A DNA stretch of 64,000 bases from an uncultured Bacteroidales bacterium. GTDB taxonomy: Bacteria; Bacteroidota; Bacteroidia; Bacteroidales; UBA932. The notes under the pieces were generated by a model. That model was given only the letters and a program-made list of their open reading frames with translations. It was not told the origin of the DNA and did no database searches. The stretch covers positions 1-64,000 of the forward strand of contig CALVDR010000006.1 in the NCBI GenBank assembly GCA_944326365.1. The letters are read 5' to 3'. Shown in pieces: positions 936-27,257 of this stretch (position 1 is the stretch's first letter; every line of letters starts with the position of its first letter). The position numbers and the translations under genes are program-made.

Positions 936-3716
936 TCAGTCAATCCTGACATTTTTCAGAGTACCATGGCCATCGGTAACGACGATCTTCAGCTCGCTGG
1001 CCGATACCGGGGCGAATCTGCACACCTGCCGACCCTTCTCAGCAGAGAAATCCGCTATTGGCAGGAACTGCCCGCCTCCGGCGGTATAGAGAATCTGGAA
1101 ACCGCAGTCAGAACCTCTGCCCCATTCGAGAGTAAGGGACCTGACTTCCGGGCCGTCAAGAACCGGGAATGTCAGTTCTTCCCCGGTACCGAGAGAAACA
1201 GGGAAATTCACACCAGTATTGGCCGGAACGGCCTCCCTGACAACGGTATCGGAACCGGCTACGGTCAGTGTGGACTGAAGACGGATATCGGTGGACGAGG
1301 CTCCGATCATGATTTCGAAATCACCCGGCTCCACCACTCTTTCCATATCCATGTCGAGAAGCGAGAGGGACGCCGGAACAAGAAGCATCTCGACACGCCT
1401 GGTCTCCCCTGGCCGGAGATGTATCCTCTCGAATCCTCTCAGCTGTTTCTCATACACGGTGATGGAACTGAGACAGTCATGGACATAGAGCTGCACCACC
1501 TCGTCGCCGACCATATCTCCGGTGTTCGTGACATCGAAGCTTACCACGACGGAATCATCAGGCGAAATCACATCAGCTGAAAGTTCCAGTCCGGAATATT
1601 CAAAAGTCGTATAGCTTAGTCCATAGCCGAAATCATACAGGGCACCGTTTATCCTCGACTGGTTTCCGTCAGGACCCGGCCTGTCATAGCCGTCCACCTG
1701 CGAATTCGGCTTGTACGGGAAGTTGAACGGAATCTGGCCTACTGTCTTGGGGAAAGTCACAGTCAGCTTGCCTCCTGGATTGTAATCTCCGCAAATGACC
1801 TCGGCGACAGCCTGTCCGCCATGAGCACCCGGATACCAGGCCTCGATGATGGCATCTGCCACTGCATCCGCATAGTTCACAGATAATGGACGTCCGTTTA
1901 TCAGGACCACTATCACAGGCTTGCCTGCAGACTTGACGGCCTTCAGCAGCTCATTCTGGAACCCAGGAAGTTCGAGACTCGTTCGGCTCTTGTTCTCGCC
2001 GCATGTACGCTGCCCTCCGCCGAGCACGACTACTGCGACATCGCTGCTTTCCACCAGTTTGACGGCCTCATCCATCATGGCGATGTCTTCAGGACGCGGC
2101 TCCACGGGAATAATCTCGGAAAGCGGCCAGTTGTAATCGACAAGGTCGCAGCCTTTGGCGTATACGACCTCGGCCTGGCCTTCCAGCCTCTCTTCCAGGC
2201 CGGCCAATACCGATGTCACGTCAGAGGCCAGAGGACCGTAATGAAGGGCATAATCTATCTCTGAGGCATTAGGTCCCACTACGGCCACCCTGCGCAGTTC
2301 CGATGGATCGAGAGGAAGTATACCGTCATTTTTCAGAAGCACGAGGGATTCCCGGGATGCCTGCAGGGCGTAAACGTTGTTTTCCGGAGAGTCGACTTCC
2401 CTGTCGGCTGCCTGATAGTCCCTCTGGTAAGGATCATCGAAAAGACCGACCAGGAACTTGACTCTCAGAATGTCACGCACCCTGTCATCGATCATGTCTT
2501 CCGGGATGGTCCCTTCCTCGACCAGTTCACGAAGAGGAAGGACATAACTGTCAGGCGAACGGAAAGTACAGCGGACATTCAGTCCGGCCTGCACACTCTG
2601 GCGGACAGCTTCCTTCATGTCGGCCGCAGTATGATGCTTGGAATAAAGATACTCCACCGCATCACTGTCGGAGACCACATAACCATGGAACCCGAAATCT
2701 CCGCGAAGACGGTCCGTAAGCCAGTAACGGCTGCCCTGTATCGGTTCCCCGTCATAGTCGTTGTAGGAACTCATGACACCCAGCATTCCGCTGCGCCGGA
2801 TGACCTCCCTCCACGGGTAAATATGGATATTCTCCACTTCATGAGGCGCTATCTGCGGGTCCACCCTGGCCATACCTTCACGGGCACCCTTGTTGTTCGA
2901 ATAGATGCCGAAATGTTTTCCGGTGGATGCTATCTGGAAATCAGTCTGCATTCCCCTGACCATGGCCACGCCGAGTTCGGCCACCAGATACGGGTCCTCG
3001 CCATAGACTTCCTCGTACCGTCCCCATCTCTGGTCACGGCCCACATCCAGAATCGGCGCATAGATATTGGTATAGCCGAGCAGTCTGGCCTCGCGTCCGG
3101 TGATGTAGCCCATCTTCTCTATCAGGTCCCTGTTCCAGGTATGACCCATACCCAGCTGGGTCGGGAAATTGGTGGCCTTGTAGGATTCCACTCCCCTGAT
3201 ACCCTCGTTCGTGAAATCCACCGGAATACCGAGCCTGGTCTCCTCCACGAAGAATTTCTGCACCTGATTCAAGGCCCATGCGTGACGCGATGCCGGCCAT
3301 ACGTTAGGATTGTCGCATAAAGGCACACTCCAGCCCAGAAAACCGTTCAGATGCTCGTCTATGGCACCTATGCCGTCTTTCCAGAGCCTGTTCTTCCACT
3401 CCGGAGTCGGCAGGTCATCCTGCAGCACCCTCCGATACCCGTAGAGAGTCACCATCTGACATGTCTTCTCCTCGATGGTCATCTGCGAAAGAAGGTCCTC
3501 GATGCGGTCGTCCAGACACGCATGAGGGTCTTCATATACATCCATTTTCCCGTTCTTGTTGAAATCTATCCACCCTGTCCTGTACATCGGATGGGTCAGG
3601 TCTTCGAATTCCAGGACTTTCTGTCCCGGCTGCGGCTGTGTCTGTGTCTGTGTCTGAGCCTGGACTTGAGACGATGCCAGACATGCCAGAAATACTGCCA
3701 GAATTTCCGTTCTCAT
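936..3716 (-). CDS. GH3 glycoside hydrolase (beta-glucosidase/beta-xylosidase type) with C-terminal carbohydrate-binding-like domain
   Basis: The predicted product is a secreted 926-residue GH3 enzyme that releases terminal beta-linked sugars. The start at 3716 (MRTEILAVFLACL) gives a clean signal peptide ending near VQAQ; an in-frame start 18 codons upstream would bury it. After a QTQTQTQPQP stretch comes an EF-hand-like loop, DFNKNGKMDVYED, then the GH3 TIM barrel with the KHF motif and the nucleophile Asp of VVSDSDA (about residue 350). The GH3-C sandwich, an Fn3-like domain (VTNTGDMVGDEVVQLYV) and about 85 extra residues resembling a discoidin-type domain follow. A TAACTTTG box at 3749-3756 suggests its own promoter. 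It is the last PUL gene, cut off from the others by the RloAB module. The exact substrate cannot be told from sequence. Confidence 0.9.
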   Translation of the reverse strand: MRTEILAVFLACLASSQVQAQTQTQTQPQPGQKVLEFEDLTHPMYRTGWIDFNKNGKMDVYEDPHACLDDRIEDLLSQMTIEEKTCQMVTLYGYRRVLQDDLPTPEWKNRLWKDGIGAIDEHLNGFLGWSVPLCDNPNVWPASRHAWALNQVQKFFVEETRLGIPVDFTNEGIRGVESYKATNFPTQLGMGHTWNRDLIEKMGYITGREARLLGYTNIYAPILDVGRDQRWGRYEEVYGEDPYLVAELGVAMVRGMQTDFQIASTGKHFGIYSNNKGAREGMARVDPQIAPHEVENIHIYPWREVIRRSGMLGVMSSYNDYDGEPIQGSRYWLTDRLRGDFGFHGYVVSDSDAVEYLYSKHHTAADMKEAVRQSVQAGLNVRCTFRSPDSYVLPLRELVEEGTIPEDMIDDRVRDILRVKFLVGLFDDPYQRDYQAADREVDSPENNVYALQASRESLVLLKNDGILPLDPSELRRVAVVGPNASEIDYALHYGPLASDVTSVLAGLEERLEGQAEVVYAKGCDLVDYNWPLSEIIPVEPRPEDIAMMDEAVKLVESSDVAVVVLGGGQRTCGENKSRTSLELPGFQNELLKAVKSAGKPVIVVLINGRPLSVNYADAVADAIIEAWYPGAHGGQAVAEVICGDYNPGGKLTVTFPKTVGQIPFNFPYKPNSQVDGYDRPGPDGNQSRINGALYDFGYGLSYTTFEYSGLELSADVISPDDSVVVSFDVTNTGDMVGDEVVQLYVHDCLSSITVYEKQLRGFERIHLRPGETRRVEMLLVPASLSLLDMDMERVVEPGDFEIMIGASSTDIRLQSTLTVAGSDTVVREAVPANTGVNFPVSLGTGEELTFPVLDGPEVRSLTLEWGRGSDCGFQILYTAGGGQFLPIADFSAEKGRQVCRFAPVSASELKIVVTDGHGTLKNVRID

Positions 3717-3748: not shown

Positions 3749-3756
3749 CAAAGTTA
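3749..3756 (-). promoter_or_regulatory. Putative -7 element for the terminal GH3 gene
   Basis: Minus-strand TAACTTTG matches TAnnTTTG, 32 nt upstream of the chosen GH3 start and inside the 63-nt gap after rloB. No clear -33 box is seen at the usual spacing, so this is tentative. Confidence 0.45.
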
Positions 3757-3779: not shown

Positions 3780-4412
3780 TCAGATAAACTTGTTCAATTC
3801 TTCTACCAACAGATGTACGGTAGTAGAAGATTCTTCCATAGCCGGATTACCATGCGACATTTCAGCAAGAACGGCAGCGGCATTTTTAATGGCGTGCGGC
3901 TGCAAGTGAAGCAATCTATTATATAGGATTGCTCCGAATCCTTCTGTCTTGGAATATGGTATTCCTGCAAGCTTTGACAGCATGTCGGGATAGCTGTTTC
4001 TGTGCAATGTCCCTTTGTAGGGATTGAAGTGCAGCAAGAACCAATATTCAAACGCCTGATTACTGTAAGCCACCTTGAACCCGTTCTTTTCGGCCAGGGC
4101 AATGGCATCATTGAAATCTTTTGCAGGAAAATCATCCTTGTCAAACACTACCCAACATTGATCATAAGTCCGTTTTTTCTTTTGGTCAGCGTCACGGATG
4201 CTGATGGCCTTGCTTACAAGGCTGGTAGTGTTCATGGCCTGACCTACCGCCTTTACCGTGGCAGCGGTCATTCTGAAAGCCTTGAAATAATCCGGCTCGG
4301 TACAGACTCCTTCGCAAACTATGAGAAACGACTGCTTTACTTTCCTCGTGCCTTGGCGACGTGTCAATGAAGCAGAATGGTGATCTTTCCTATTTGTCTT
4401 TCCCATGGTCAT
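3780..4412 (-). CDS. RloB-family (AbiLii-like) TOPRIM-type protein
   Basis: The 210-residue protein carries the RloB signature IVCEGVCTEPDYF (Glu34) followed by VVFDKDDF (Asp91, Asp93). This is the Glu plus DxD pattern of TOPRIM-like metal-dependent nucleases. RloB proteins pair with an ATPase in the abortive-infection system AbiL and in restriction-linked RloAB islands. The ATG overlaps the stop of the upstream ATPase gene by 4 nt (ATGA), so the two are translationally coupled. The basic N-terminus (KTNRKDHHSASLTRRQGTRK) has no signal peptide, so the protein is cytoplasmic. Codon use is more AT-rich than in the flanking hydrolase genes, which points to horizontal acquisition. Nuclease activity is inferred from the motif only. 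Confidence 0.85.
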   Translation of the reverse strand: MTMGKTNRKDHHSASLTRRQGTRKVKQSFLIVCEGVCTEPDYFKAFRMTAATVKAVGQAMNTTSLVSKAISIRDADQKKKRTYDQCWVVFDKDDFPAKDFNDAIALAEKNGFKVAYSNQAFEYWFLLHFNPYKGTLHRNSYPDMLSKLAGIPYSKTEGFGAILYNRLLHLQPHAIKNAAAVLAEMSHGNPAMEESSTTVHLLVEELNKFI

Positions 4413-5623
4413 CCCTCCGCAGTAAAGATTGTTTCCATTTCACCGATGATGGGTGTGGCTCCGAATTTCCCTTGCAGGTAATCCCGTTCGAAAGGAGAAC
4501 TTCCACGTACCTTGTACTCGGCCAGTGAATAGGCCTCAGTCGCCCCGAAATTATCCTTTTGGGTGAACCATACCTGGTCTCTGCGGAACAGACCGGCACT
4601 GAGCAGAAACGTATCATGGGTGGTGAACAGCAGTTGCGCCCCTTTGGGATTCGTTTCCGCAGAGTTGAAGAGCGTAATGATCTTGTGCACAAGCAACGGA
4701 TGAAGTTTGGAGTCAAGTTCGTCCACTACAAGACGTTTTCCGTTGTCCAGAGCATCTATGATAGGGTATGCTAAAGAGAAATATTTGATGGTTCCCTCCG
4801 ATTCATTCCCATTAAACGAGAAAGTAACATTGGCCGTCTCCCGACCTTCATCGTCGTACTGGCGATGACTGCTCACTATGCTGTTGTCAATCTTTGATAT
4901 ATTGTCTATGCCCAAATCCGCATACTTGGCGAAACGGATTATACGTTCACGCATCTTTTCATCGTCCAGATGTCTGATAGCTTGCGCCCACATCTTTTCG
5001 TCTTCGCTACAGAACATGATTTGCGTATCGCCAAGCCAATGCAAAATATTGACAGCGGTATCTTCATTGAACTGGGCAGCAGTGGAGAGGAGAAGCGCAT
5101 TGCCACGTACCATCCTCTTGCTGACCAGTTCCTGTATCAATGGACTTTTTATATGTACGGTGGTAGTTTTCTCTTCCCTGTAGAATACTTCCACTTCTTT
5201 TGCCCGTTTCTTATTCATTCGACGATAAAGCCATTCGGCATGTACGGTTTTTGAGTCCACCTCAAAACCATAACGATAAATATACTGTCCTACGACGAAA
5301 GTAGCTTCCATAATGGTAGGCTCAAGTGCAGTAGAAGCGTTCAAGCGGAAATTTTCTACGTCAATGCTCTCACCCGCTTGACTATTCTTGAATGAATCCA
5401 TAATGAAATGCTTGTAAAAAGCGATAGCTTTCAATACATTCGTCTTCCCGGACGCATTTGCTCCATAAATCACCGCACTACGCACGATGGACAACCCAAT
5501 ATCGTAAAATGAAATGATATCGTTAGGCTCCGGAAGAGATTCTTTGAGCGAAGTAGCCACAAAAGATAATTTCAGGTCATCCTTTATGGACAGGTAATTA
5601 TTGACACAAAATTCAAGAATCAT
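4409..5623 (-). CDS. RloA/AbiLi-like AAA (ABC-type) ATPase
   Basis: The 404-residue cytoplasmic ATPase belongs to the AAA_15/AAA_21 (RloA, OLD-like) group. Walker A is IYGANASGKTN (K60, T61), an ABC-signature-like NESEGTIKY lies near 273-281, Walker B is LVVDELDSKLHP (D301, E302), and the switch histidine is H336 in TTHDTF. The start MILEFCVNNYLSIKD at 5623 matches the family N-terminus; the longer reading frame to 5677 runs across the inverted-repeat promoter and is unlikely. It is paired with the RloB-like gene. In AbiL-type systems the ATPase is thought to sense phage and license the toxic partner; that role is inferred here from gene pairing. Confidence 0.87.
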   Translation of the reverse strand: MILEFCVNNYLSIKDDLKLSFVATSLKESLPEPNDIISFYDIGLSIVRSAVIYGANASGKTNVLKAIAFYKHFIMDSFKNSQAGESIDVENFRLNASTALEPTIMEATFVVGQYIYRYGFEVDSKTVHAEWLYRRMNKKRAKEVEVFYREEKTTTVHIKSPLIQELVSKRMVRGNALLLSTAAQFNEDTAVNILHWLGDTQIMFCSEDEKMWAQAIRHLDDEKMRERIIRFAKYADLGIDNISKIDNSIVSSHRQYDDEGRETANVTFSFNGNESEGTIKYFSLAYPIIDALDNGKRLVVDELDSKLHPLLVHKIITLFNSAETNPKGAQLLFTTHDTFLLSAGLFRRDQVWFTQKDNFGATEAYSLAEYKVRGSSPFERDYLQGKFGATPIIGEMETIFTAEG

Positions 5624-5631
5624 ATATTTAA

Positions 5632-5666
5632 CTTCTATATTTGCGGATTTTCTACAAATATAGAAG
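5632..5666 (-). promoter_or_regulatory. Perfect 12-bp inverted repeat holding divergent -7 boxes upstream of the RloAB genes
   Basis: CTTCTATATTTG at 5632-5643 and CAAATATAGAAG at 5655-5666 are exact reverse complements with an 11-bp spacer. Each arm contains TATATTTG, a match to the Bacteroidota -7 element, one on each strand. The minus-strand box (5655-5662) would place a start site shortly before the ATPase ATG at 5623. The palindrome could also be an operator for autoregulation. No regulator gene is adjacent. Confidence 0.7.
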
Positions 5667-5726
5667 TTTTCTTTCACATTAAATAAAAGATAGCCTGAAT
5701 TTCGATTATATAATGAAAAGAAATAC

Positions 5727-7931
5727 TTATCCGCATTTATCCCCCGACCACCTAATTATTATTGGCCGTAAACAGGTGTATCTTTCCGGATACCCCCCCC
5801 CCAAAAAAAAAGAATGGCTATAAAGCCATTCTTCAATCAAACCTGAAGTTTTCATCATCAGGACCGGCATCCAGTGGCCGGCGATGACCGAGCGCGCGCG
5901 GAACTGGATAGGCATGCAGTCGACAGTCCCGTACCAGTCCCCCAGCGGGAACCTCCTCGGACTCTCGTTCACATAGTCGTAAACCGGAACCACAAGCATG
6001 TCGAATGTCTCCCTGTCAGGAGCCATGGCGGCTATCCACATGATCCAGTCCGACTTCGTATAGTCCTCGCGGCAGTCGAGAGGCACTCCGTAGCGGTTCC
6101 GCTTCGCGAGATAATACGGAATCTCCTTCGCCATCACGTCTTCAGGGAATACACCTGTCCCCCAGAGCTTGTCCCATACCATATTGTATTTCAGGCTCCA
6201 CGTGTCAGGCCTGTCAAAGGCCAGACGGTAATGGTCGCCGTCATCCGCCTTCTCTATCCAGGCAGAAGCCATCTCACGCGCCTTGGCCATATACCTGGCT
6301 GCAGTATCTTCCATCCCCTGCATTCCGGCCAGTTCGCTGTAGGCCGCCACGCCCATGATGGCCTTGACGGAAAGATTCGCATTATGCGCCCAATGCCCCG
6401 CAAAATCATCGGTACAGAGCTGGTTCTCGGGATCCAGTCCATACTCCACGAGATAGTCAGTCCACTGGCTGAGCAGAGACCACCATCTGGCCGCATACTC
6501 CGGAGTACCTTCCGCCTTGGCTATGGCGGCAGACAGTATCACCATGTTTCCGGCCTCCTCCACAGGCATGTCCTCAGGATAGGTCTGTCCGTTCGCCTTC
6601 GGATATTTGCCGATATCATGCGCAGGGAAAGGCTTGGCCCATCTGCCGCTCTCGCTGTATTCGAAGATGGAAGTCATCATGCCTTTCAGCAGGTCGGTAT
6701 TGTACAGCAGGAACAGAGGGGCTGACGGGTATGTCAGGTCGACGGTATTCACGCTTCCGTTGCTTCCGTTCTCCTTCGAGAAGAAAAGAAGATTCCCCTT
6801 CCTGTCAGTGAAAAGCTTATGCGCGGCTATGGCAGGCCTGTAGGAAAATGCCAGCAGCTCGGCATATTTCCGTCCGCCGGCAGCCTCGGCATCACTCATT
6901 ATCTTCTCGTCGAAATCACGGCAGCGCTCCATGATCTGAAGATAATCACGCTGGAATCTTTCGAAGGCATCGAAAATGCTCACCCCACCTTCATGCTTCC
7001 AGTAAGCCATATACCGCTCGTACATATACTCCATGCAGTACACATCATCATATCCTGCCATGAAGAAGCCATGCTTCCCGGCCTTGTCCACCTGGCCCAG
7101 ATCGTGGCAGTAAGCCAGCACCGCCGTATACACCGTATCCCTGTCCACGATGACATCAGGCAGCATGTCAGGAAGATTCCCGGTGCCGGCAAAGGAACTT
7201 CTGACCTCGTCCGACTTTCCTATAACCGTCGCGGCAGACGCACCTGAACGCCCGGCCAGATACACATAGCCCCAGTCTATGCCTGTATAGTCCCCCGACC
7301 TGACAGTATACGGCTGCTCGAGAGTGCCTGAATACGCATAATCCAGACCGCCCCGGCTCATGCTGCGCGATTCGGTATCCTGCCCTGGTTCATGGACGGC
7401 AAGCACAGGAACAGTGTCCACATAGAACTGCACGTCATGCGAAGCCCTGTCGAGAGACCTGACCCTGTAGGAAATATAATTTACCGGTGTGGACATCAGA
7501 TCGAGGTCATCTATCAGCAGCGGCGCAGTGAAGACCACATCCAGCTCCACGGGACCGCACCTGAAAGTGTAATAGGTCTGGGTAGGGAGCACGTCCACAG
7601 ACAGCTGCTCGGCGGCATTTCCGAAAAATCCGTCCACCGACGCACCCATGAAACGGTAAACCTCACCGTCCACACGGACAGCCCCGACAAGAGGACGGAC
7701 AGTCTCGAACCAATGGCTTGTAGGACCGTCGTACAGCCTGTCACAAGGCGACCATACAGAAAAATAGGAATCCGATACCAGAAGAGGAAACGACTGCGCG
7801 CGCAGTTCTGTCTGTCTTACCGGCGTGAAAAGCCTGTCCTCTCCGGAAAGGGTGCCGGCAGTCTTTGCCGGCAATATTGCCGTGGCGGCAAAGGCTGCCA
7901 CGGCAGATATCATTATCTTTTTTATGTTCAT
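5727..7931 (-). CDS. DUF4965/DUF1793 glutaminase-A-like secreted protein; 3' end possibly frameshifted
   Basis: The N-terminus (MNIKKIMISAVAAFAATAILPAKT) is a signal peptide. The body matches the GtaA-like architecture found in many PULs (DUF4964/DUF5127, DUF4965, DUF1793): FPLLVSDSYFSVWSPCDRL, DGPTSHWFETVRPLVG, and late segments such as NLSVKAIMGVAAYSELAG and YNMVWDKLWGTGVFP. Despite the glutaminase name, these proteins are suspected carbohydrate-active enzymes and their substrate is unknown. The frame runs past the expected family end, through a terminator-like hairpin and a C10/A9 tract. In the -1 frame the protein would end in ENFRFD at a stop at 5833, directly before that hairpin, so a one-base deletion or sequencing error near 5860 is likely. 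It follows the PA14-GH3 gene by 83 nt. Confidence 0.82.
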   Translation of the reverse strand: MNIKKIMISAVAAFAATAILPAKTAGTLSGEDRLFTPVRQTELRAQSFPLLVSDSYFSVWSPCDRLYDGPTSHWFETVRPLVGAVRVDGEVYRFMGASVDGFFGNAAEQLSVDVLPTQTYYTFRCGPVELDVVFTAPLLIDDLDLMSTPVNYISYRVRSLDRASHDVQFYVDTVPVLAVHEPGQDTESRSMSRGGLDYAYSGTLEQPYTVRSGDYTGIDWGYVYLAGRSGASAATVIGKSDEVRSSFAGTGNLPDMLPDVIVDRDTVYTAVLAYCHDLGQVDKAGKHGFFMAGYDDVYCMEYMYERYMAYWKHEGGVSIFDAFERFQRDYLQIMERCRDFDEKIMSDAEAAGGRKYAELLAFSYRPAIAAHKLFTDRKGNLLFFSKENGSNGSVNTVDLTYPSAPLFLLYNTDLLKGMMTSIFEYSESGRWAKPFPAHDIGKYPKANGQTYPEDMPVEEAGNMVILSAAIAKAEGTPEYAARWWSLLSQWTDYLVEYGLDPENQLCTDDFAGHWAHNANLSVKAIMGVAAYSELAGMQGMEDTAARYMAKAREMASAWIEKADDGDHYRLAFDRPDTWSLKYNMVWDKLWGTGVFPEDVMAKEIPYYLAKRNRYGVPLDCREDYTKSDWIMWIAAMAPDRETFDMLVVPVYDYVNESPRRFPLGDWYGTVDCMPIQFRARSVIAGHWMPVLMMKTSGLIEEWLYSHSFFLGGGYPERYTCLRPIIIRWSGDKCG
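5802..5840 (-). terminator. Terminator-like hairpin inside the annotated end of the DUF4965 gene
   Basis: On the minus strand GAATGGCTTTATAGCCATTC is followed by nine T (5803-5811) and then ten G (5793-5802). This is a good intrinsic terminator. It sits inside the open frame, which is why the annotated 3' end of the gene is suspect. Confidence 0.65.
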
Positions 7932-8014
7932 TTCTATTGATTTGTGGTCAGCCCGGCGGAAAGCCGCATATCGGACAACACCATTCGCCGGACTGACTGG
8001 TTATCTGGAATTTT

Positions 8015-10522
8015 TCAGTCAAGGGTTACGATACCTCTCAGAGTCAGGTCAGCGTCCGCCGATGAAGACCCTGCCAGAATTTCGAACTCCCCGGCTTCCA
8101 TACGGAACCTGCCTTCATCCATGTCGAAGAACTCGAAAGCCCCGGAATCGAGGATGATTTCCACGCGCTTGCTCTCACCTTTCCTGAGAAAGACTTTCTC
8201 AAAGCCTTTCAACTCTTTCTCAGGACGGGGTACGCTGCTCTTGATATCCCTGACATAGACCTGCGCGGTCTCGGCACCGTCCGTCTTTCCGGTATTCCTG
8301 ACATCGAACGACACCGACACACGTCCGTCGGACAACACGGCCAGCTCCAGCCCGCCATACTCGAAATCAGTGTAGCTCAGTCCGTAACCGAAAGGAAACA
8401 GCGGCTTCACCCCGCTCCTGTCATAGCCCCTGTAGCCGATGAACACACCTTCGGCATACTGCACACGGTGATGGACCACTGTACGGCGGTGATCATAATA
8501 GCTTCTGTAAGCAGGGTTGTCTGACCAGGACCTCTCTATCGATATCGGCAGCTTTCCGCTCGGATTCACACGGCCGGAAAGCACCTCGGCCACAGCAGTC
8601 CCTCCTTCCTGGCCGGGATACCACGCCATAAGCACGGCGTCTGCATCGTCTATCCAGCGGCTGAAATCCACCGCACCTCCGGCATTCACCACTACAGTCA
8701 CCTTCTTTCCGCTTGAGCAAAGCACCTTTATCAGTTCCTCATGCCCCGGAGGCAGGCGGAATGTCCTGTCGGAGCCTTCATCCTCGGTGTCCTTGTCGAA
8801 ACCGACACTCACCACGATATTATCCGCATCCAGCTTCGATAGCATCTTCCCGTCCACTCTCAGACAGGTGAAGTCCAGCGATGCCGGGCCTGTCTTCTCA
8901 TAATACTCTATCCTGATCTCATATGTCTGTCCCGCCTTCACTTCCATGATATGGCTTTTGCCGCTCAGTGCGTGGCCTTTCCAGTCAGCGAACACTTCCT
9001 GTCCGTCTATGACAAGACGGTAGCCGTCATCCGCCGCTATCCTGAATATGGTCCATCCGTCATGCTGCGGGCGGTAGGAAGCCTTGTAGATCGCGGAGAA
9101 ATTGTCCTTGTTGATACGCGGGTCAGGAGAACCTTTGGCCCACTGATTATGGATCGAAGGCTCTATACGGGTGATCTGCGGAGCTCCGGTCTCGAACTCA
9201 GACCAGAAATCGCGGGAGTTGTAATACTCTGCCAGGAAACCTTTCTTTCCGGACAATGCATCGGCATAGAAATTATCCGCCTCCGACACTGTCCAGAGCG
9301 AATCCGCCAGCACGGAAACATTCCCGCCGAAAATTTCCGTCATTCCCTTATGCAGGCTCACGGCATAAGCCGGCACCACATGGCTGCTGCCCCCTCCTGC
9401 AGGTGCGGCATCCATATTGTGTCCTGTGATCAGAGTACGGCCTTTCAGAGGGAGGGTACCCTTCGTGTTCTTCAGCATGACTATACCTTCGCGGGCCACC
9501 TGGAGAGCAGTCTGAGCGGACTTTTCCTCATCGGCTGCGGAACTGTCAGGCCCGGAAGGACGGTCGAGAATACCCAGGGCGATAAGGGACTGAAGGATAT
9601 GCTGCACCTTCAGGTCTATGGTCTTTTCAGTCACCGTACCCGTCGAAATGGCCTGGAGCAGCGCCTCGCGGCTCATATAGTTTCCGTAAGGCATCTCCAG
9701 ATCCATGCCTGCATTCGCCGCACTCACTGTAGAATAAGTGGAATTCCAGTCCGACATGAGGATACCCTTGAATCCCCATTCCTTTCTGAGGATATCGATA
9801 TTCAGCCACGGATGCTCCGAAGTATGTACGCCGTTCAGAAGATTGTAACTGTTCATCACGGCCCCTACGTGAGCCTCCTGCACGGCCTTGCGGAAAGCAG
9901 GGAAGTAAATCTCCTGCAGTGTGCGCTCGTCTGCATCGGTGCTGATATGGCTTCTGTCCCACTCCTGGTTGTTCCCTGCGAAATGCTTGACCACAGCCAT
10001 GACACCGCGGGACTGCACGCCGCGTATATAGCTCACAGCCATCTCACCGGCCAGATACGGGTCTTCACCGTAATACTCGAAATTCCTGCCGCACATCGGG
10101 GCACGGTAGATATTGACCCCCGGGCCCAGCATTATGGAGATTCCCTGCGCACGTGCATCGCGGCCTATGGATTCACCCATCTCGCGTACCAGAGCCCGGT
10201 TCCATGTGGATGCAGCCATCACGCCGGCTGGATATCTCGTGGCGGGGATTTCGCTCCGGACTCCGGCAGGGCCGTCCGACATCCTCACCTGCGGGATGCC
10301 GAGACGAGGTATCGCCCTGATATAAAACGCATTGTCACCGCCCACATAGTCAAGTTTCTCCTCCAGCGTCATCTGCGATACGATCCCGGCGGCACGCGCC
10401 TCTATCTCGGGGGTGATTTCCTGAGCGGACATTGCCGCGGCAGCGGCAAAAAATACAAGCGGCGCGGCAGTTCCCTTGAGCAGCGCCTGCAATATGTTTG
10501 TCTTCATCTTCTGAAATGTCAA
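8015..10522 (-). CDS. GH3 beta-glucosidase with inserted PA14 domain
   Basis: The 835-residue secreted enzyme has a signal peptide with AAAAAMSAQ, the GH3 barrel (PRLGIPQVRMSDGPAGVR, VKHFAGNNQEWDR) and nucleophile Asp258 in ILMSDWNST. The GH3-C domain is interrupted by a PA14 lectin-like insert (about residues 426-555, from FLAEYYNSRDFW to ASLDF) and is followed by an Fn3-like domain. PA14 inserts in GH3 enzymes cap the active site and set chain-length preference. The ATG at 10522 overlaps the stop of the upstream GH3 gene (ATGA, 4 nt), indicating coupling; MKTNIL at 10507 is an alternative start. It probably trims beta-gluco-oligosaccharides in the periplasm. Confidence 0.92.
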   Translation of the reverse strand: MTFQKMKTNILQALLKGTAAPLVFFAAAAAMSAQEITPEIEARAAGIVSQMTLEEKLDYVGGDNAFYIRAIPRLGIPQVRMSDGPAGVRSEIPATRYPAGVMAASTWNRALVREMGESIGRDARAQGISIMLGPGVNIYRAPMCGRNFEYYGEDPYLAGEMAVSYIRGVQSRGVMAVVKHFAGNNQEWDRSHISTDADERTLQEIYFPAFRKAVQEAHVGAVMNSYNLLNGVHTSEHPWLNIDILRKEWGFKGILMSDWNSTYSTVSAANAGMDLEMPYGNYMSREALLQAISTGTVTEKTIDLKVQHILQSLIALGILDRPSGPDSSAADEEKSAQTALQVAREGIVMLKNTKGTLPLKGRTLITGHNMDAAPAGGGSSHVVPAYAVSLHKGMTEIFGGNVSVLADSLWTVSEADNFYADALSGKKGFLAEYYNSRDFWSEFETGAPQITRIEPSIHNQWAKGSPDPRINKDNFSAIYKASYRPQHDGWTIFRIAADDGYRLVIDGQEVFADWKGHALSGKSHIMEVKAGQTYEIRIEYYEKTGPASLDFTCLRVDGKMLSKLDADNIVVSVGFDKDTEDEGSDRTFRLPPGHEELIKVLCSSGKKVTVVVNAGGAVDFSRWIDDADAVLMAWYPGQEGGTAVAEVLSGRVNPSGKLPISIERSWSDNPAYRSYYDHRRTVVHHRVQYAEGVFIGYRGYDRSGVKPLFPFGYGLSYTDFEYGGLELAVLSDGRVSVSFDVRNTGKTDGAETAQVYVRDIKSSVPRPEKELKGFEKVFLRKGESKRVEIILDSGAFEFFDMDEGRFRMEAGEFEILAGSSSADADLTLRGIVTLD

Positions 10523-12789
10523 TTTTTGGATTTTTTCTTTCCTGTACGTTCCTCCAAGGTAAATGCGACGCTCTCGAAATGCTCGCTGTCGGTACCGACC
10601 ATGAAAGTGAAATCGCCCGGTTCCACGACATAATCAAGAGACTCGGTATAGAATCCGAGCTGCGCATCCGTGATATCGAAAACCACTTCCAGGGACTCCC
10701 CCGGAGCGAGGGCTATCTTCCTGAACCCCTTCAGTTCCTTCACCGGACGTGTAACCGAAGCCACCTCGTCGCGCACATACAGCTGGACGACCTCCTCTCC
10801 CGCACGGTCTCCGGTATTGGAGACTTCCACACGCACCCTGGCATGGACATCGCCGCCGTCACCCGGAAGGACTTCCGGAGAACTGTAGCTGAACTGCGTA
10901 TAGCTCAGGCCATAACCGAAAGGATAGGCCGGTTCGTTCGGGATATCCATATACCGCGCATGCCACCATCCGTTCGATGCAGGACGGCCCGTACTCTTGT
11001 ACTGATAATATATAGGTATCTGCCCGTGATGCAGAGGGAAAGTCATCGGAAGCTTGCCGGACGGATTGTAGTCACCCCAGAGTACATTGCAGATGGCATT
11101 CCCGGCCTCGCTGCCCAGCCACCACGTACAGAGGACCGCCCCCGCAGCCTCCCGTGCCTCATTGAAAATCACCGGACGGCCGCACATCAGCAGGACCACC
11201 GTAGGGGTGCCCGTCCGGGCAATGGCTTCGACCAGTTCCTGCTGCTCCGCAGCAATGGCTATGTCTCCGCGCGAACGCATCTCCCCGCTGTACTCACCCC
11301 TCTCGCCTATGGCCACAACGGCCACATCAGCCCTGCGGACATCTTCAATGGTCTTTTCCAGGCCCGTAATCTCATCGGTATCGAGATTGTAGCCGTCACT
11401 GTAAAGCACTTCCACACCCCGTTTCCGCATCGCATCATAGAGGGTCACAGCACGGCTCTCGTCAGCGCAGGACCACTTCGCACACATGTCGTGGGCCGAC
11501 TTCGAAAGTCCTCCCACCAGAGCCACGGTCTTCACATCATCGGACAGAGGCAGTATGTCTCCGGCATTTTTCAGAAGCACCATGGAGCGTTCGGACACAT
11601 ACAATGCATCGGCATGGGACTGCGCAGAGCTGACTATCGCCTTTTCGCGCGCTTCGCTGCAGTAGCGGAACGGATCCTCGAAAAGCCCCAGTCTGTATTT
11701 CTGCTCCAGGATACGCCTCACGGCATCGTCCACCAGTTTTTCGGATACCAGACCTTCCCTGACCAGATCAGCCAGATGACCGGAATAGCAAGGAGACGAC
11801 ATCTCCATGTCCAGCCCGGCTTCTATCCCCTTCAGAGCAGCCTCGCGGGTATCGGCGGCACAGCGGTGGTTTATCACCTCTCCGAGAGAATAGTAGTCTG
11901 AAACCACGAAGCCTTCGAAACCCCAGTCATCTTTCAGGATATCACGCAGAAGCTGGCGGTTCACGGTACTCGGGACACTGCAGAAATCATTGAACGCACT
12001 CATGACAGTAGCAGCTCCAGCCTCTATCCCGGCCTTGTACGGAAGCATGTAGAAATTCGCGAACTGCCCCATGGACATGTCCACGCTGTTGTATTCCTTG
12101 CCGGCTATCGGAGCTCCGTATGCCGCGAAATGCTTTATGCATGAAAGTATGGTCAGGGTGTCGGCCAGATCATCTCCCTGAAAACCGCGGACACGGGCAC
12201 GGGCCACTGCCGCACCGTAATACGGGTCTTCACCCGCACCCTCCATCACTCGGCCCCATCTGGCATCCCATCCCACATCCACCATCGGAGCGAATGTCCA
12301 GTGTATGCCGGAAGCCGCTGATTCCCTCGCCGCACATCTCGCCGCCCTTTCTATGGCCTCAAGGTCGAAGCTTGCAGCCTCGCCGAGAGGGACAGGAAAG
12401 CCTGTACGATATCCGTGTATCACATCCTTTCCGAAAAGCAACGGAATCTGCAGACGGGACTGCATGGCCAGTTCCTGATACTTCCTCGTCTCGGCCACTC
12501 CCTCCACATTCAGCATGGAGCCTACATAACCGTTTGCGATGGCCTTCCTGTAGTCTCCGGTCTTCACTTCAGGTCCGGTGGTAAAATTCGCAGGTATCTG
12601 TACGAGCTGCCCCACCTTCTCTTCGAGAGTCATCTTCTTCATCAGGGAAGAGATGAAACGGTCCATCTGCCTGTCCTCATCCTGAGCGGACAATGCCCAG
12701 GCAGAAATCATAAAGGCTGAAGCCGCCGCCAGCGGCCTCAGCCACGCAAATACTAACCTGCAGCCTACCATTCGCATTTCTGTGTCCAT
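10519..12789 (-). CDS. bglX: BglX-like GH3 beta-glucosidase
   Basis: The 756-residue protein has an N-terminal signal segment (LAAASAFMISAWALSAQ), then MTLEEKVGQLVQIPANF, the GH3 barrel with KDVIHGYRTGFPVPLGEAASFD, KHFAAYG and nucleophile Asp298 in FVVSDYYSLGEV. GH3-C and Fn3-like domains follow, ending in KKKSKN. BglX-type enzymes are periplasmic exo-beta-glucosidases with broad linkage tolerance. The start overlaps the phosphoesterase gene by 25 nt at 12789. The internal ATGs at 12777 and 12771 would reduce the overlap and are equally good candidates. It is translationally linked to the next GH3 gene. Confidence 0.9.
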   Translation of the reverse strand: MDTEMRMVGCRLVFAWLRPLAAASAFMISAWALSAQDEDRQMDRFISSLMKKMTLEEKVGQLVQIPANFTTGPEVKTGDYRKAIANGYVGSMLNVEGVAETRKYQELAMQSRLQIPLLFGKDVIHGYRTGFPVPLGEAASFDLEAIERAARCAARESAASGIHWTFAPMVDVGWDARWGRVMEGAGEDPYYGAAVARARVRGFQGDDLADTLTILSCIKHFAAYGAPIAGKEYNSVDMSMGQFANFYMLPYKAGIEAGAATVMSAFNDFCSVPSTVNRQLLRDILKDDWGFEGFVVSDYYSLGEVINHRCAADTREAALKGIEAGLDMEMSSPCYSGHLADLVREGLVSEKLVDDAVRRILEQKYRLGLFEDPFRYCSEAREKAIVSSAQSHADALYVSERSMVLLKNAGDILPLSDDVKTVALVGGLSKSAHDMCAKWSCADESRAVTLYDAMRKRGVEVLYSDGYNLDTDEITGLEKTIEDVRRADVAVVAIGERGEYSGEMRSRGDIAIAAEQQELVEAIARTGTPTVVLLMCGRPVIFNEAREAAGAVLCTWWLGSEAGNAICNVLWGDYNPSGKLPMTFPLHHGQIPIYYQYKSTGRPASNGWWHARYMDIPNEPAYPFGYGLSYTQFSYSSPEVLPGDGGDVHARVRVEVSNTGDRAGEEVVQLYVRDEVASVTRPVKELKGFRKIALAPGESLEVVFDITDAQLGFYTESLDYVVEPGDFTFMVGTDSEHFESVAFTLEERTGKKKSKN

Positions 12790-14453
12790 TCGTGACCGAA
12801 ACGGTCTGTTATACGGACCTCACCGGAAGTCACTCCGGCCGAAGGCTTGATACGGAACAGATGGCGGGTATCATTCGGTCCAGGCTCGCCGAGTCTCTGT
12901 TTCTTCTGCTCTTCGTTTCCACCTGGAGTTACAAGCCATTCATTCCATGCATTGCGGTATGCAGGATCTCCCTCGGCATGATATTCCGTCATAGAGCCTT
13001 TACGGGTTCCGTTCTCATACCACTCCGGCGTACCCCATATGTTGTCATGGAGGAATACGTTCACATAGACATAGCCGTTCCCGGTTTCATCAGGAGTATA
13101 GATCTGCATCTGGTCGTTGCCGTTCTTCTCAGCAGGCTCTGCCCTCTTGTACTCCCATGTGATGTTCTGACCGTCCACGTCAGCCACGATGAAACCTCTC
13201 GGCACACCGTCCGTAGTGATTTCGTTCTCCATGTAAAGAGTACCCGTAGCCCTGGCTATCTGATGCGACTCCATGGACTGGAATCCGTTTTCGCCGGCAG
13301 AATAACTGTAATTATACCCCGTATGGATATGCCCTGACCAGTTCTGTACCCTATATCCGGATACCAGAGCCTTGAACTTGTCATAGTTCCTGAGCCAGCT
13401 CGCATCGTTCTCGCCTCCGGAATTCAGCATTCTGGCTGCCGGTCCATGGGTCACTATGCACAGTGGAGTGGTCTTGTCCACATACAGCAGGTCATTTTCG
13501 ATGAACTCCAGAGTCTCGTCATCGAAGCCTTCGCAGTAGTGCCAGCGTGCATCGCCATCCCACTCTCCCCCGTCAGGATGCGGAGTATCGATCTCGTTCC
13601 AGATGATGGTGTCGAGGAAGAGATAGTGCACACTTCCGATATTGGCCGAATAGTTGTTCGGCCCGAAATCACGGATATATCCTGATACGGCTACATAGTC
13701 GTTTGTATGTTTCGCAGGGTCATCCACCAGAGTGGAAGGTATCAGGCCTGAGCCTGTATTCAGAGGACCGATATGGTCATGATTCCCCGGGACATTGAAC
13801 GTCGGTATCTGTGTCATGGCTATCTGGTCCTTGAAATAAGCATGTTCCTGCGGTCTCTCGTATGTCAGATCCCCCACATTCACCATATACACCGGCACAT
13901 CGGATTCCTTCTTGTATTCGGCGAGGGCGTTTATCACTTTCGTATAGCTCTCGTACGAACCGGCCATATCCTTGCGGATCTGAGGATCACCCACATACAG
14001 CACCTTGTAGTGCAGGGATGAGACCGTCATCGGTTCCAGACCGAAATTGAACTGCTGCACCTCGTTCTTCTTGTCCAGGTCTATCATCTTGTACCCGCCG
14101 AAACAGAAATCCTCATCCACAGGAATCTCATATCCGTTCGGGACACAGACGAAGACGCACCTCTGGGTGGAGAAATCGGTATTCAGCCAGTACATTCCAT
14201 TGGCATCCGTCCTGGTGCAGAGACGTCCGTCGCTCACCACCACATCGGGCATGGCTGCCCGGGTCTTTGCATTGATCACTATTCCTTTTACAGTCGCGCC
14301 TTCCTTGTCCGGGACATTCAGGTCAGTCACCGCCGACCCTCCTCCGTTCCCGCCGTTTCCGCCGGCAGAAGGCTTGTCGGTTTCCCCGCAAGCCGCCAGC
14401 GACATCAGTACTGATGCGGCTGCCGCCGCAATGCTCAAAATTTTCCTTGTCAT
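12765..14453 (-). CDS. Calcineurin-like metallophosphoesterase lipoprotein
   Basis: The 562-residue lipoprotein (lipobox SLAAC, Cys22) has a glycine-rich linker, then a CarboxypepD_reg-like N-terminal domain (VKGIVINAKTRAAMPDVVVSDG) as in the Metallophos_N family. The phosphoesterase core shows GDPQ (D156), GDLTYE (D195), GNHDH (N224-D226), THGP and GHIHTGYN, a full set of dinuclear metal ligands. A separate C-terminal domain follows. Such proteins occur in PULs and may remove phosphate or phosphodiester decorations from glycans, but the substrate is unknown. It lies between the DUF1735 gene (80-nt gap) and bglX (overlap), so it is part of the operon. Confidence 0.9.
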   Translation of the reverse strand: MTRKILSIAAAAASVLMSLAACGETDKPSAGGNGGNGGGSAVTDLNVPDKEGATVKGIVINAKTRAAMPDVVVSDGRLCTRTDANGMYWLNTDFSTQRCVFVCVPNGYEIPVDEDFCFGGYKMIDLDKKNEVQQFNFGLEPMTVSSLHYKVLYVGDPQIRKDMAGSYESYTKVINALAEYKKESDVPVYMVNVGDLTYERPQEHAYFKDQIAMTQIPTFNVPGNHDHIGPLNTGSGLIPSTLVDDPAKHTNDYVAVSGYIRDFGPNNYSANIGSVHYLFLDTIIWNEIDTPHPDGGEWDGDARWHYCEGFDDETLEFIENDLLYVDKTTPLCIVTHGPAARMLNSGGENDASWLRNYDKFKALVSGYRVQNWSGHIHTGYNYSYSAGENGFQSMESHQIARATGTLYMENEITTDGVPRGFIVADVDGQNITWEYKRAEPAEKNGNDQMQIYTPDETGNGYVYVNVFLHDNIWGTPEWYENGTRKGSMTEYHAEGDPAYRNAWNEWLVTPGGNEEQKKQRLGEPGPNDTRHLFRIKPSAGVTSGEVRITDRFGHEWTQKCEW

Positions 14454-14533
14454 TTAATATCAAATCCTTAAAAATGAGGCACGGCGACAGGCCGGATTTT
14501 TCTCCTGCCATCGCCATGCCTCTTTCATTTCCA

Positions 14534-15043
14534 CTATTCAAACTTTATGTATACAGACTTGTAGTCGAACGATACATTCAGAGTGCTCTCAGCCTGAAGA
14601 GACAGAGGAAGTATGTAATCGTCCGCCGACAGGCCGGCAGCCTTGAATCCCGCGATATCGAGTTTCACAGGCACATAGACCTGGTTGTTTTCCCCTGTAT
14701 CCAGAGTGACAGTACTCTGGAGCAGAGACCAGTAGTCGGCAGGCATCTGCTCGTAATCGGTCCCGGCCTCGATGTTGTATACATCCAGGGCATATTCATC
14801 CACGACGATATCAGCCTGGATGCTTCCGCCGTTGTTTCCCGCATTGTAGATGCAGAGCTGGTAGCAGCCGTTTTCGTCCAGATCTTCCTGTGAAACCGTG
14901 ATCAGTGGATTGCGTTCGGCCAGAGGGAAATATACCTTGGAATCCACGTCGTTCTCATACAGTATGTTCTGCGATTTCGAGCAGGACGATACCAGAAGGA
15001 CCGCCGCTGCCGCGCCGAGAAATATTTTAAGTATGTCTTTCAT
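14534..15043 (-). CDS. DUF1735-type surface lipoprotein of a Sus-like locus
   Basis: The start MKDILKIFLGAAAAVLLVSSCSKS at 15043 gives a 169-residue lipoprotein with Cys at the VSSC lipobox. The longer frame to 15217 runs into susD and lacks a signal sequence. The body (VYFPLAERNPLITVSQEDLDENG, YVPVKLDIAGFKAAGL, DDYILPLSL) matches the immunoglobulin-like DUF1735 domain found in SusE-position, surface glycan-binding proteins. It lies directly downstream of susD, the usual place for such a protein. It is short, with only one domain and no obvious C-terminal carbohydrate-binding module. Confidence 0.85.
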   Translation of the reverse strand: MKDILKIFLGAAAAVLLVSSCSKSQNILYENDVDSKVYFPLAERNPLITVSQEDLDENGCYQLCIYNAGNNGGSIQADIVVDEYALDVYNIEAGTDYEQMPADYWSLLQSTVTLDTGENNQVYVPVKLDIAGFKAAGLSADDYILPLSLQAESTLNVSFDYKSVYIKFE

Positions 15044-15094
15044 TTTATGATATGTACTTGTTTTTCTATCTGATTTGCATTTATGATTTCCCGA

Positions 15095-15140
15095 GGGTGA
15101 CTCAAAAGGCGGGACTTCAGGCGTAACGCGGAAATCACCC
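15095..15140. repeat. Hairpin repeat in the susD-DUF1735 gap
   Basis: GGGTGA (15095-15100) and TCACCC (15135-15140) bracket a segment with CTCAAAAGGCGGG and CGCGGAAATCACCC. This resembles the GCGGAAATCGCCC units upstream of the two tRNA genes and looks like a diverged member of that family. It partly extends the 121-nt intercistronic space and could modulate the stoichiometry of the downstream genes. Confidence 0.4.
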
Positions 15141-15164
15141 CCTTTCGAGCCGTCCTCATATCTG

Positions 15165-17084
15165 CTAATTGTAGCCCGGATTCTGGACGAGAAGGTTGTT
15201 GTTCTCGATCTCGGCACGCGGGATAGGAAGCCAGTTCGTCTTAGGATAATCGAATACCCGAGGGAACTTGCTCTGCTCCTTCAATGTGGCGAGGGTATTG
15301 AAATCCTCTACGGTTGCACCATCGATATTCAGACCCTCAGGAGTGTGTCCGAGCCATTCCTGTGCGAGGTTCCAGCGGCGCAGATTGTGATACAGACGGC
15401 ACTCGCAGGCCAGCTCGGCCATGTTCTCGTAGCGGAGCGCCTTCCTCATGTTTTCTCCGGACGGTTTTCCTCCGGCCTCGGTCCAGGATTCTTCGAAACC
15501 TGGAAGACCTGCCCTCTCACGCACCTTGTCCAGATACCCTATGCCCGTAGAGCTCAGATCTCCGTCATACTCGAAGTCAGCCTCGGCATAGTCAAGATAA
15601 AGCTCGGCCAGACGCAGGTAAGGGAACGGATACTTGGCCAGCCCCATAGTATTAGTAGACTCGTTGTAAGTACTGTTCACCGATATGAATTTCTGCAGGA
15701 CATAGCCTGTGCAGCTTCCGTTGTACTCTGTCTGCTCGTCTCCGGTATAGCCGTGCTTCTGGTGATAACGGAGCTCCAGAGTATAGGTATCACTGTTGCT
15801 GGTGTACTCACCGCCGTCATATCCTATGGTGGCATAGAAACGTGGATCACGGTTCTGGCAGAAGTCGGAGATGCCGTTACCGTCACCGTCAGCTACAAGT
15901 TCTGCAAGTGACTTGTCCTTAGTATCAGGATCAGCCCAGAGAGGCAGACCCTTGTCCGTCAGGAAAGTCTCCGCGATCTGCAGCGTAGGCACGAGATACT
16001 GTCTGAATCCGTTTCCGGTATAGTTGATCGCTGCTCCATCGGCATTATACTCGGAACCGTCCCAGACGCGGACACCTGCTATCCTCTGAATATTCACCCC
16101 CTCTCCAGGCTGTGCACCTATGGAGAAAAGATATTCCTTCTGGGCTGCCCAGTCTGTCTCGACGAAGCAGTTGTAATAGTTCTTCGTCCCGGCATCGGCA
16201 TCAGCCGCTGTACCGCCATACAATGCGTAGCCGTTGCCTTCTGCCAGATTGATAGCCTCCTGGATGGCATCCAGAGCCTTTTTCCATTTTTCCTTGTCAT
16301 ACTCGCGAGGCATCAGCGGAGTCCCGTCTTTCGACACGAATGACGAATATGCCTCGTTCCCGTTTGTCATCGGGCTGGCGGCATACATCAGCACCCTGGC
16401 CTTGTAAGCCTTGGCAGCCACTGAACTGGCACGGCCCAGTTCGTTGTTCGCCACGGTAGGATTCAGCATGGAAGCGGCGGTATCGAATGTCGTGGTGACG
16501 AAGTCCACGCAGTCATCCCACGAAGACCTCGGCATCATCATCTCATCCGCCTCCGCATCCACAGGGATCTCATGATCGATGATGACTACAGGACCGTAAT
16601 ACTGCATCAGGGTCCAGTGCAGATAGGCTATCAGGAAATAAGCCTCCCCCTTGGTCCTGGTCTTCTCTGACTCCGGCATGTCAGGGACACTGTCGACATG
16701 CGAGATGAACATGTACGCATATTTGATACCCTTGTACAGGTCCCAGTATACAGGCTGGCGTCCCAGGGCGTTCCCTCCGTCCCAGAAACTGAAATAAGTA
16801 CCGTCAGGGGTCTCGTTTCCGCAGAGGACGGAGCGGTATCCGAACCATTCGAGATTTCCTGCAGGTCCCGTGATGAGGTCACCTCCGGCACACATGTCGG
16901 GAGCCCACCTGAAAGAAGATATGTTCGGAATATAGTTGTAGACACGGTACAGGAACTGCTGAGCCTGCTGGCTCGACTTGAACGAATCCTCCAGTATGGC
17001 TGTGTTTTCCGGCACGACATCCAGGAAACTGCATGAAGCCAGAGAGAGGACAGATGCTGCAAATATTATAAACTTGTTTTTCAT
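15165..17084 (-). CDS. susD: SusD/RagB-family glycan-binding lipoprotein
   Basis: The 639-residue lipoprotein (MKNKFIIFAASVLSLASCSFLDVVPE) has Cys at LASC followed by the SusD N-terminal signature. TPR-like helices and the RagB domain follow, with C-terminal LRRWNLAQEWLG and WLPIPRAEIENNNLLVQNPGY, the standard SusD ending. It forms the lid over the SusC barrel and captures oligosaccharides at the cell surface. It sits 27 nt downstream of susC in the same operon. Confidence 0.96.
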   Translation of the reverse strand: MKNKFIIFAASVLSLASCSFLDVVPENTAILEDSFKSSQQAQQFLYRVYNYIPNISSFRWAPDMCAGGDLITGPAGNLEWFGYRSVLCGNETPDGTYFSFWDGGNALGRQPVYWDLYKGIKYAYMFISHVDSVPDMPESEKTRTKGEAYFLIAYLHWTLMQYYGPVVIIDHEIPVDAEADEMMMPRSSWDDCVDFVTTTFDTAASMLNPTVANNELGRASSVAAKAYKARVLMYAASPMTNGNEAYSSFVSKDGTPLMPREYDKEKWKKALDAIQEAINLAEGNGYALYGGTAADADAGTKNYYNCFVETDWAAQKEYLFSIGAQPGEGVNIQRIAGVRVWDGSEYNADGAAINYTGNGFRQYLVPTLQIAETFLTDKGLPLWADPDTKDKSLAELVADGDGNGISDFCQNRDPRFYATIGYDGGEYTSNSDTYTLELRYHQKHGYTGDEQTEYNGSCTGYVLQKFISVNSTYNESTNTMGLAKYPFPYLRLAELYLDYAEADFEYDGDLSSTGIGYLDKVRERAGLPGFEESWTEAGGKPSGENMRKALRYENMAELACECRLYHNLRRWNLAQEWLGHTPEGLNIDGATVEDFNTLATLKEQSKFPRVFDYPKTNWLPIPRAEIENNNLLVQNPGYN

Positions 17085-17111
17085 TTTATGCTTGTATCTT
17101 GTTTGGATCCA

Positions 17112-20279: not shown

Positions 20280-20385
20280 AGAATGTGTCAGTTACTAGTT
20301 AATACATCAAAATAATACGGTAATCGCTTTTTGTGGTCAATGGCGACATCTGACATCGCAGGTTATGATTTGTTACAAAACAGGA

Positions 20386-20419
20386 CAAATATAGCGCCCC
20401 CCCCCCCCGAAAAAACAAA
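20386..20419 (-). promoter_or_regulatory. susC operon promoter with a C12 tract in the spacer
   Basis: The minus-strand -7 element TATATTTG lies at 20386-20393 and a TTTG -33 element at 20416-20419, 22 nt apart. The spacer includes an unbroken run of 12 C (20397-20408 on the plus strand). Reported Bacteroidota spacers are about 19-21 nt, so loss of one to three bases would bring the promoter to optimum. Slipped-strand phase variation is therefore plausible. Confidence 0.7.
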
Positions 20420-20447
20420 AAAAACTTACGATTTGTTACAAAAATAA

Positions 20448-20478
20448 TTTGGATTCATATTTCCAATGTCTATATTTG
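20448..20478 (+). promoter_or_regulatory. Promoter of the divergent lipoprotein operon
   Basis: TTTG at 20448-20451 and TATATTTG at 20471-20478, spaced by 19 nt, fit the Bacteroidota consensus. Transcription would begin near 20485, inside the longer reading frame starting at 20466. That supports the start codon at 20556. Confidence 0.75.
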
Positions 20479-20555
20479 CATCGGTAAAATCTTTTTGTCA
20501 TCGGCACATCCGGAACGCTATCGCAGGCTTAAGGACACTTAAACTATCCGAGACA

Positions 20556-22352: not shown

Positions 22353-22383
22353 CAACCATATAAACACTTTAATAACTATCATC

Positions 22384-22548
22384 ATGAAACAAACACAGAT
22401 TTACGAGACCCTGTCATCGTACAGGGCTCCTGAAATGTCTCTGACGGAAGTTTCCGCAGAGAACGGATTCGCCGTTTCAGGCGAACCGGAACCTACAGAT
22501 TTAGGAATTGACGCTCCGGGATGGAGTGAAGGTGTAACAGGATTTTAA
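22384..22548 (+). CDS. 54-residue conserved-type small protein between FISUMP lipoproteins
   Basis: The short frame starts ATG at 22384, 31 nt after the preceding stop, and ends TAA at 22546-22548, 12 nt before the next gene. It encodes MKQTQIYETLSSYRAPEMSL and ends GWSEGVTGF. It is acidic, has no signal peptide, and contains a YRAPEM motif like the Y-x-x-PE openings of small Bacteroidales peptides found beside fimbrillin-like and FISUMP genes. It fills the gap of a three-gene operon and keeps codon use like its neighbours. Function unknown; a secreted or regulatory peptide is possible. Confidence 0.7.
   Translation: MKQTQIYETLSSYRAPEMSLTEVSAENGFAVSGEPEPTDLGIDAPGWSEGVTGF

Positions 22549-25010: not shown

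Positions 25011-27257
<2,247 letters not shown>

What the first reader, a model, noticed from the sequence alone, without database searches (positions are those of the whole stretch)
3780..5666. RloA/RloB (AbiL-like) defence pair inserted in a glycan-utilisation locus
Seen: an ABC-type ATPase with intact Walker motifs is translationally coupled (ATGA) to a protein with a TOPRIM-like Glu plus DxD set. The pair sits between the DUF4965-like and terminal GH3 genes of a collinear PUL, and its base composition is lower in GC. Known: RloA/RloB homologues make up AbiL-type abortive infection systems. Inference: a mobile defence cassette has used the PUL as a neutral insertion site and split off the last GH3, which now seems to have its own -7 box.
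Basis: partly seen in the sequence, partly recalled or inferred. Interest (0 to 1): 0.6.

Follow-up and report, generated by a model that had tools for sequence, protein, structure and literature searches.

The report
Mobile RloA/RloB (AbiL-type) phage-defence pair
A two-gene set of a known kind, thought to make infected bacterial cells shut down and so stop phages, has been picked up from other gut bacteria; it sits at the edge of a block of sugar-digesting genes that has itself changed place, and it did not split that block as first thought.

Summary
The pair is real. RloB (3780-4412, minus) matches Pfam RloB at 5.1e-44. RloA (4409-5623, minus) matches AAA_21 at 9.3e-36. PADLOC calls them AbiLii and AbiLi. 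They overlap by ATGA, have 45% GC against 52% for the window, and keep the Walker and TOPRIM-type residues. Horizontal gain is well supported: relatives 89% identical occur in Parabacteroides and Marseilla, while the best relative in its own genus is 59%. DNA homology covers only promoter + rloA + rloB, in most cases stopping at the rloB stop codon.

The placement story is wrong. In the nearest sister genome the 'terminal GH3' is not beside the PUL: it sits next to tRNA-His, while the PUL lies between an O-methyltransferase and a murA-like gene that are adjacent in our genome. Our genome therefore has a block of about 30 kb (pair + PUL + CobN-type operon) between GH3 and tRNA-His, with the pair at its edge. 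The GH3 was not split off.

It is a new member of a known kind. One less expected feature is a dyad over the rloA promoter, kept at fixed spacing down to 58% protein identity (covariation weak).

The parts
3780..4412 (-). rloB (AbiLii-like), 210 aa, TOPRIM-type nuclease effector (inferred)
   Evidence: PF13707 RloB E 5.1e-44, 151 bits against cut-off 31.5; PADLOC AbiLii 8.6e-31; E34, D91, D93 invariant in 13 sequences
4409..5623 (-). rloA (AbiLi-like), 404 aa, ABC/SMC-type ATPase
   Evidence: PF13304 AAA_21 E 9.3e-36; PADLOC AbiLi 6.7e-95; model pLDDT 80.5 matches Rad50 and PtuA heads
4409..4412 (-). ATGA overlap of rloA stop and rloB start
   Evidence: sequence
5655..5662 (-). TATATTTG -7 box of rloA
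   Evidence: sequence; conserved in the aligned upstream stretches; -7 consensus recalled
5630..5668 (-). 14-bp inverted repeat, 11-nt gap, overlapping the -7 box, 6 nt before the rloA ATG: possible operator
   Evidence: 14/14 here, mean 10.2/14 in 11 rows including the window, best of 1193 placements; same place in L119-L121 and L125; covariation weak
3749..3756 (-). TAACTTTG -7 box before the GH3 gene
   Evidence: sequence; consensus recalled
936..3716 (-). neighbour: GH3 gene, not part of the PUL or of the pair
   Evidence: PF00933, PF01915; in G181 between tRNA-Pro and tRNA-His
5851..27257 (.). neighbour: relocated PUL block (GtaA/DUF4965-type, GH3 x2, calcineurin-like, SusD, SusC, BACON, GH97)
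   Evidence: collinear with G181 C2:93383-72031; Pfam
5727..5850 (-). 38-residue C-terminal run-on of the DUF4965-type gene past the seam; includes C10 (5793-5802) and A9 (5803-5811) tracts
   Evidence: 734 aa here, 696 aa in G181, homology ends at 5851

Best explanation
rloA-rloB is a horizontally acquired AbiL-type abortive-infection operon. Shown: family, coupling, intact catalytic residues, foreign composition, patchy occurrence, transfer unit of promoter plus two genes. Inferred: RloA, an SMC/Rad50-like ATPase, is the sensor and platform that holds the TOPRIM nuclease RloB in check; a phage product releases or activates RloB, which cuts nucleic acid (by analogy with PARIS AriB most likely tRNA) and arrests the cell. 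The pair lies at the edge of a block of about 30 kb that also holds a PUL which occupies another chromosomal site in the sister species; it does not interrupt the PUL.
For: Family. An RloB frame follows RloA directly in 11 of 11 named relatives, one of them frameshifted, and RloB is found beside RloA in 13 of 16 other genus loci (L119 only weakly and in part); of the 3 misses, two lie at contig ends and one RloA has internal stops. Transfer: 89% identity in Parabacteroides and Marseilla against 59% within the genus; DNA homology limited to about 5703-3780; primase or integrase genes beside the pair in L046, L049 and L050; RloB on 39 plasmid and 5 phage records. Placement. Mechanism by analogy: PMC10440598, PMC3985639, PMC12409363 (passages read).
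Against: No phage test. The RloB model is of medium confidence (pLDDT 73.5) and its fold matches are not decisive: OLD TOPRIM entries 6njx/6njv at Z 6.0, within the range of unrelated alpha/beta folds. In print, AbiLi of F. nucleatum did not neutralise its toxic AbiLii, and lactococcal AbiLii was not toxic in E. coli (PMC3985639), so 'ATPase holds nuclease in check' may be wrong for AbiL. The tRNA target is inferred only from AriB.
Confidence: 0.75

Rival explanations
1. The pair came in alone, as a short cassette, into an intergenic site of the PUL and cut off its last GH3.
For: The transfer unit is short and the GH3 has its own -7 box.
Against: In G181 the GH3 lies beside tRNA-His on another contig, with no PUL. 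Of 4 relatives read just past the DUF4965-type gene, G181 has an O-methyltransferase, G103 and G314 a GH2-like gene and G377 a phosphodiesterase-like gene (named by eye). In G103 the GH3 homologue has a SusD-like neighbour (by eye).
Confidence: 0.07
2. Toxin-antitoxin style module kept for its own stability, with no useful phage defence.
For: Toxic AbiLii is reported for F. nucleatum (PMC3985639, passages read).
Against: Same paper: AbiLi did not neutralise the toxin. The family was named for abortive infection in Lactococcus (cited in PMC10440598).
Confidence: 0.12
3. Assembly artefact: the pair and PUL were joined wrongly to the GH3 contig end.
For: C10/A9 tracts at 5793-5811 near the seam; the window starts at the contig start; no second assembly of the species could be examined.
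Against: The two outer flanks of the block (GH3 at 3.7 kb, tRNA-His at 33.5 kb) are about 125 bp apart in the sister genome, which a chance misjoin would not reproduce. The PUL's other site is closed in our genome.
Confidence: 0.05

Closest known systems
AbiL (AbiLi/AbiLii) of Lactococcus lactis; RloA/RloB of Campylobacter
   Same: Gene order ATPase then RloB, PF13707 and AAA_21 profiles, PADLOC AbiLi/AbiLii models
   Different: No restriction genes among the scanned neighbours, unlike the rlo genes of type I R-M loci; only part of the PADLOC profiles is spanned by the best stretch
PARIS (AriA/AriB)
   Same: Two-gene ABC ATPase plus TOPRIM nuclease layout; likely the same logic
   Different: RloB family instead of AriB; no AriB model matched; trigger and target unknown
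OLD / Gabija GajA
   Same: ATPase plus TOPRIM combination
   Different: Two separate proteins here, one fused protein there
Septu PtuA
   Same: PtuA is among the best fold matches of RloA (Foldseek E 4.7e-11; Z 17.6, rmsd 4.8, 292 aligned)
   Different: Partner is RloB, not an HNH nuclease

Membership tests
AbiL (RloA/RloB) | RloB-family second gene | tested here: met
   PF13707 151.2 bits against a cut-off of 31.5
AbiL (RloA/RloB) | AAA_21-type ATPase with intact Walker motifs, encoded first | tested here: met
   PF13304 124.9 bits against 27; Walker A residues invariant in 15
AbiL (RloA/RloB) | Defence models for both genes | tested here: met
   PADLOC AbiLi 6.7e-95, AbiLii 8.6e-31
AbiL (RloA/RloB) | TOPRIM fold of RloB | tested here: inconclusive
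   Strand-Glu34, strand-Asp91/Asp93 order fits; OLD TOPRIM at Z 6.0, not above unrelated rows; HHpred link is in print (PMC10440598)
AbiL (RloA/RloB) | Abortive phage resistance | not testable with these tools
   needs phage challenge
PARIS | AriB effector | tested here: not met
   No AriB model at E<=1; only AbiLii matched RloB
OLD / Gabija | ATPase and TOPRIM fused in one protein | tested here: not met
   two open reading frames, 404 aa (from ATG 5623) and 210 aa
Septu | HNH nuclease PtuB partner | tested here: not met
   Above cut-off the partner matches RloB only
Transferred cassette | Closer relatives in other families than in own genus, absent from near kin | tested here: met

The most novel reading that the evidence does not exclude
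The dyad across the rloA promoter is an operator bound by the RloA-RloB complex itself: the pair represses its own promoter, and when a phage product takes the complex apart, repression and nuclease inhibition are lost together, so that the system makes more of itself as it fires. No other regulator gene lies within the conserved cassette.
Probability: 0.2. Interest if true: 0.5.

Novelty: new member of a known kind. Interest (0 to 1): 0.27.

Why it matters
It adds a well-bounded AbiL unit in gut Bacteroidales, with close copies on apparent mobile elements in other families, useful for finding the still unknown trigger and target of RloB. It also corrects the placement: the glycan block moved, the pair sits at its seam, and the GH3 is an unrelated neighbour.

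Tried and rejected
Direct repeats marking insertion ends: none of 10 bases or more between the four seam zones; only one 10-base inverted match. Origin of 5704-5850: among the 140 loci then in hand only our own genome's loci match it, and a weak 84% match to two places in G181 covers the terminator-like hairpin 5802-5849. Solved-structure search by sequence: nothing convincing for RloB; retron/Septu PtuA weakly for RloA. The fold search gave no AriB row for RloB among those shown; this is no evidence of absence. RNA reading of the dyad: the upstream arm overlaps the -7 box, so it would not be transcribed from this promoter; covariation was weak (covariation score 0.124 against 0.081 +/- 0.016 in shuffles, reached by 7 of 500; cells paired 75.3% against 73.8%, reached by 70 of 500). 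Rows dropped: L047 RloB (frameshift) from A3/A4; L052 from the mean and ranking and from A6 (N bases upstream). In one search the less related upstream stretches (L128-L131, L133, L134, L137, L138, and the second pair in L091) did not show the dyad at that place, L122 and L124 only its outer AACT/AGTT, and L135 only a weak match.

In print: searches of the held library found the word RloB in a phage-defence setting only in PMC10440598 (required RloB, defense and phage together; one search listed 6 papers with the word). I read passages of PMC10440598, PMC3985639 and PMC12409363 and search listings otherwise. Deng 1999 (AbiL) was seen only as a reference.

Full report
Observation. Two minus-strand genes lie at 3780-4412 and 4409-5623 and overlap by ATGA. 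The first is RloB (PF13707, 5.1e-44); the second is an AAA_21 ATPase (9.3e-36). PADLOC matches are AbiLii 8.6e-31 and AbiLi 6.7e-95. NCBIfam gives no match for RloB and only sub-cut-off matches for RloA. GC is 0.449 for the pair against 0.522 on average; 5 of 622 windows of that size are as low.

Catalytic residues. In 13 RloB sequences (one frameshifted copy left out) E34, T38, E39, D91, D93, N118, E122 and H128 are invariant. In 15 RloA sequences GANASGK, D301/E302 and H336 are invariant. The predicted RloB places Glu34 at the end of one strand and Asp91 at the end of another, in the order expected of TOPRIM (pLDDT 73.5), but its fold matches do not settle the fold: the OLD TOPRIM entries score Z 6.0 (rmsd 4.5-4.6, 140-143 aligned), with unrelated folds at up to 7.7 above them. 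RloA (pLDDT 80.5) clearly matches Rad50 (Z 19.8, rmsd 3.3, 270 aligned) and PtuA (Z 17.6, rmsd 4.8, 292 aligned).

Transfer. In 84,980 named genomes the scan, which finds close relatives only, returned 11 loci at 74-89% identity, among them Parabacteroides, Marseilla, Paraprevotella, Palleniella, Butyricimonas and Prevotella. In the window's own genus 17 of 400 genomes, our own included, have a match at E<=1e-60, the best other one at 59%. The DNA match to the named loci starts between 5662 and 5703, and in 7 of 11 it ends at 3777-3780, the rloB stop; in the other four it ends earlier, at 3788 (L056), 3812 (L053, after a break), 3814 (L052) and 4024 (L054). L046 and L049 carry a CHC2-type primase just upstream, and L049 and L050 an integrase-type domain; the other loci do not all look like this. 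RloB relatives occur on 39 plasmid records, including 3.7-3.9 kb E. coli plasmids, and on 5 phage records, all under 60% identity.

Placement. The nearest relative found is G181 (DUF4965-type protein 95%). Window 5851-27235 is collinear with G181 C2:93383-72031. There the block lies between an O-methyltransferase and a murA-like gene; our contig C1 has those two genes side by side. Window 217-3611 and 33484-39700 match one G181 contig in which the GH3 gene and tRNA-His are about 125 bases apart. So our genome holds a block of about 30 kb between GH3 and tRNA-His: the pair, the PUL, and a CobN/ExbB/DUF2149 operon at 27.6-33.4 kb, whose CobN-like protein has a match in 1 of 6 relatives, G103, and none in G181. 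Which site of the PUL is the older one is not known, nor whether the pair arrived with the PUL or separately. Of 8 relatives searched with the RloB profile, 6 (G181, G103, G314, G377, G395, G116) have no match; G143 and G262 have only distant ones (E about 2e-12). The DUF4965-type gene runs 38 residues past the seam because its old stop is gone. None of 9 relatives' DUF4965-type loci has the GH3 orthologue or the pair.

Mechanism. In print (passages read): RloB is linked to OLD_TOPRIM by HHpred (PMC10440598); F. nucleatum AbiLii is toxic in E. coli but AbiLi does not neutralise it, and lactococcal AbiLii was not toxic (PMC3985639); in PARIS the ATPase AriA holds the TOPRIM nuclease AriB until a phage protein releases it to cut tRNA (PMC12409363). 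I take the PARIS logic as most likely, with the neutralisation result as a caution.

Promoter dyad. Window 5668-5655 and 5643-5630 form a perfect 14-bp inverted repeat around an 11-base gap, overlapping the -7 box and ending 6 bases before ATG. In the 11 usable sequences (the window and 10 of 11 named loci) the mean is 10.2 of 14, the best of 1193 placements, though the window itself is among the rows. Genus relatives at about 58% protein identity (L119-L121, L125) keep it at the same spacing. The outer and inner parts are conserved, the middle is not, and covariation is only slight. A protein operator is the simplest reading; which protein binds is unknown.

Verdict.

Noticed in passing
G000 C5:8715-10740 (L091): A second, distant RloA/RloB pair (27% and 24% identity) in the same genome, downstream of ParB-like and primase-like genes (by eye).
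   Followed up: partly
window 5851-27257: The whole PUL occupies different chromosomal sites in two sister species, with a closed site between O-methyltransferase and murA-like genes here.
   Followed up: partly
window 27277-27417 and 27448-27523: Two multi-copy intergenic repeats at the right edge of the PUL block; the first has more than 20 matching rows in G181, the second is 97-100% identical at other places in G000.
   Followed up: no
window 27629-33379: CobN-like, MotA/ExbB-like and DUF2149 operon; its CobN-like protein was not found in G181.
   Followed up: partly
window 5793-5811: C10 followed by A9 on the + strand, a stretch prone to sequencing error, inside the run-on end of the DUF4965-type gene.
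   Followed up: no
L047:11215-11823: RloB is frameshifted in Marseilla massiliensis An819 although its RloA is intact and 89% identical to ours.
   Followed up: no
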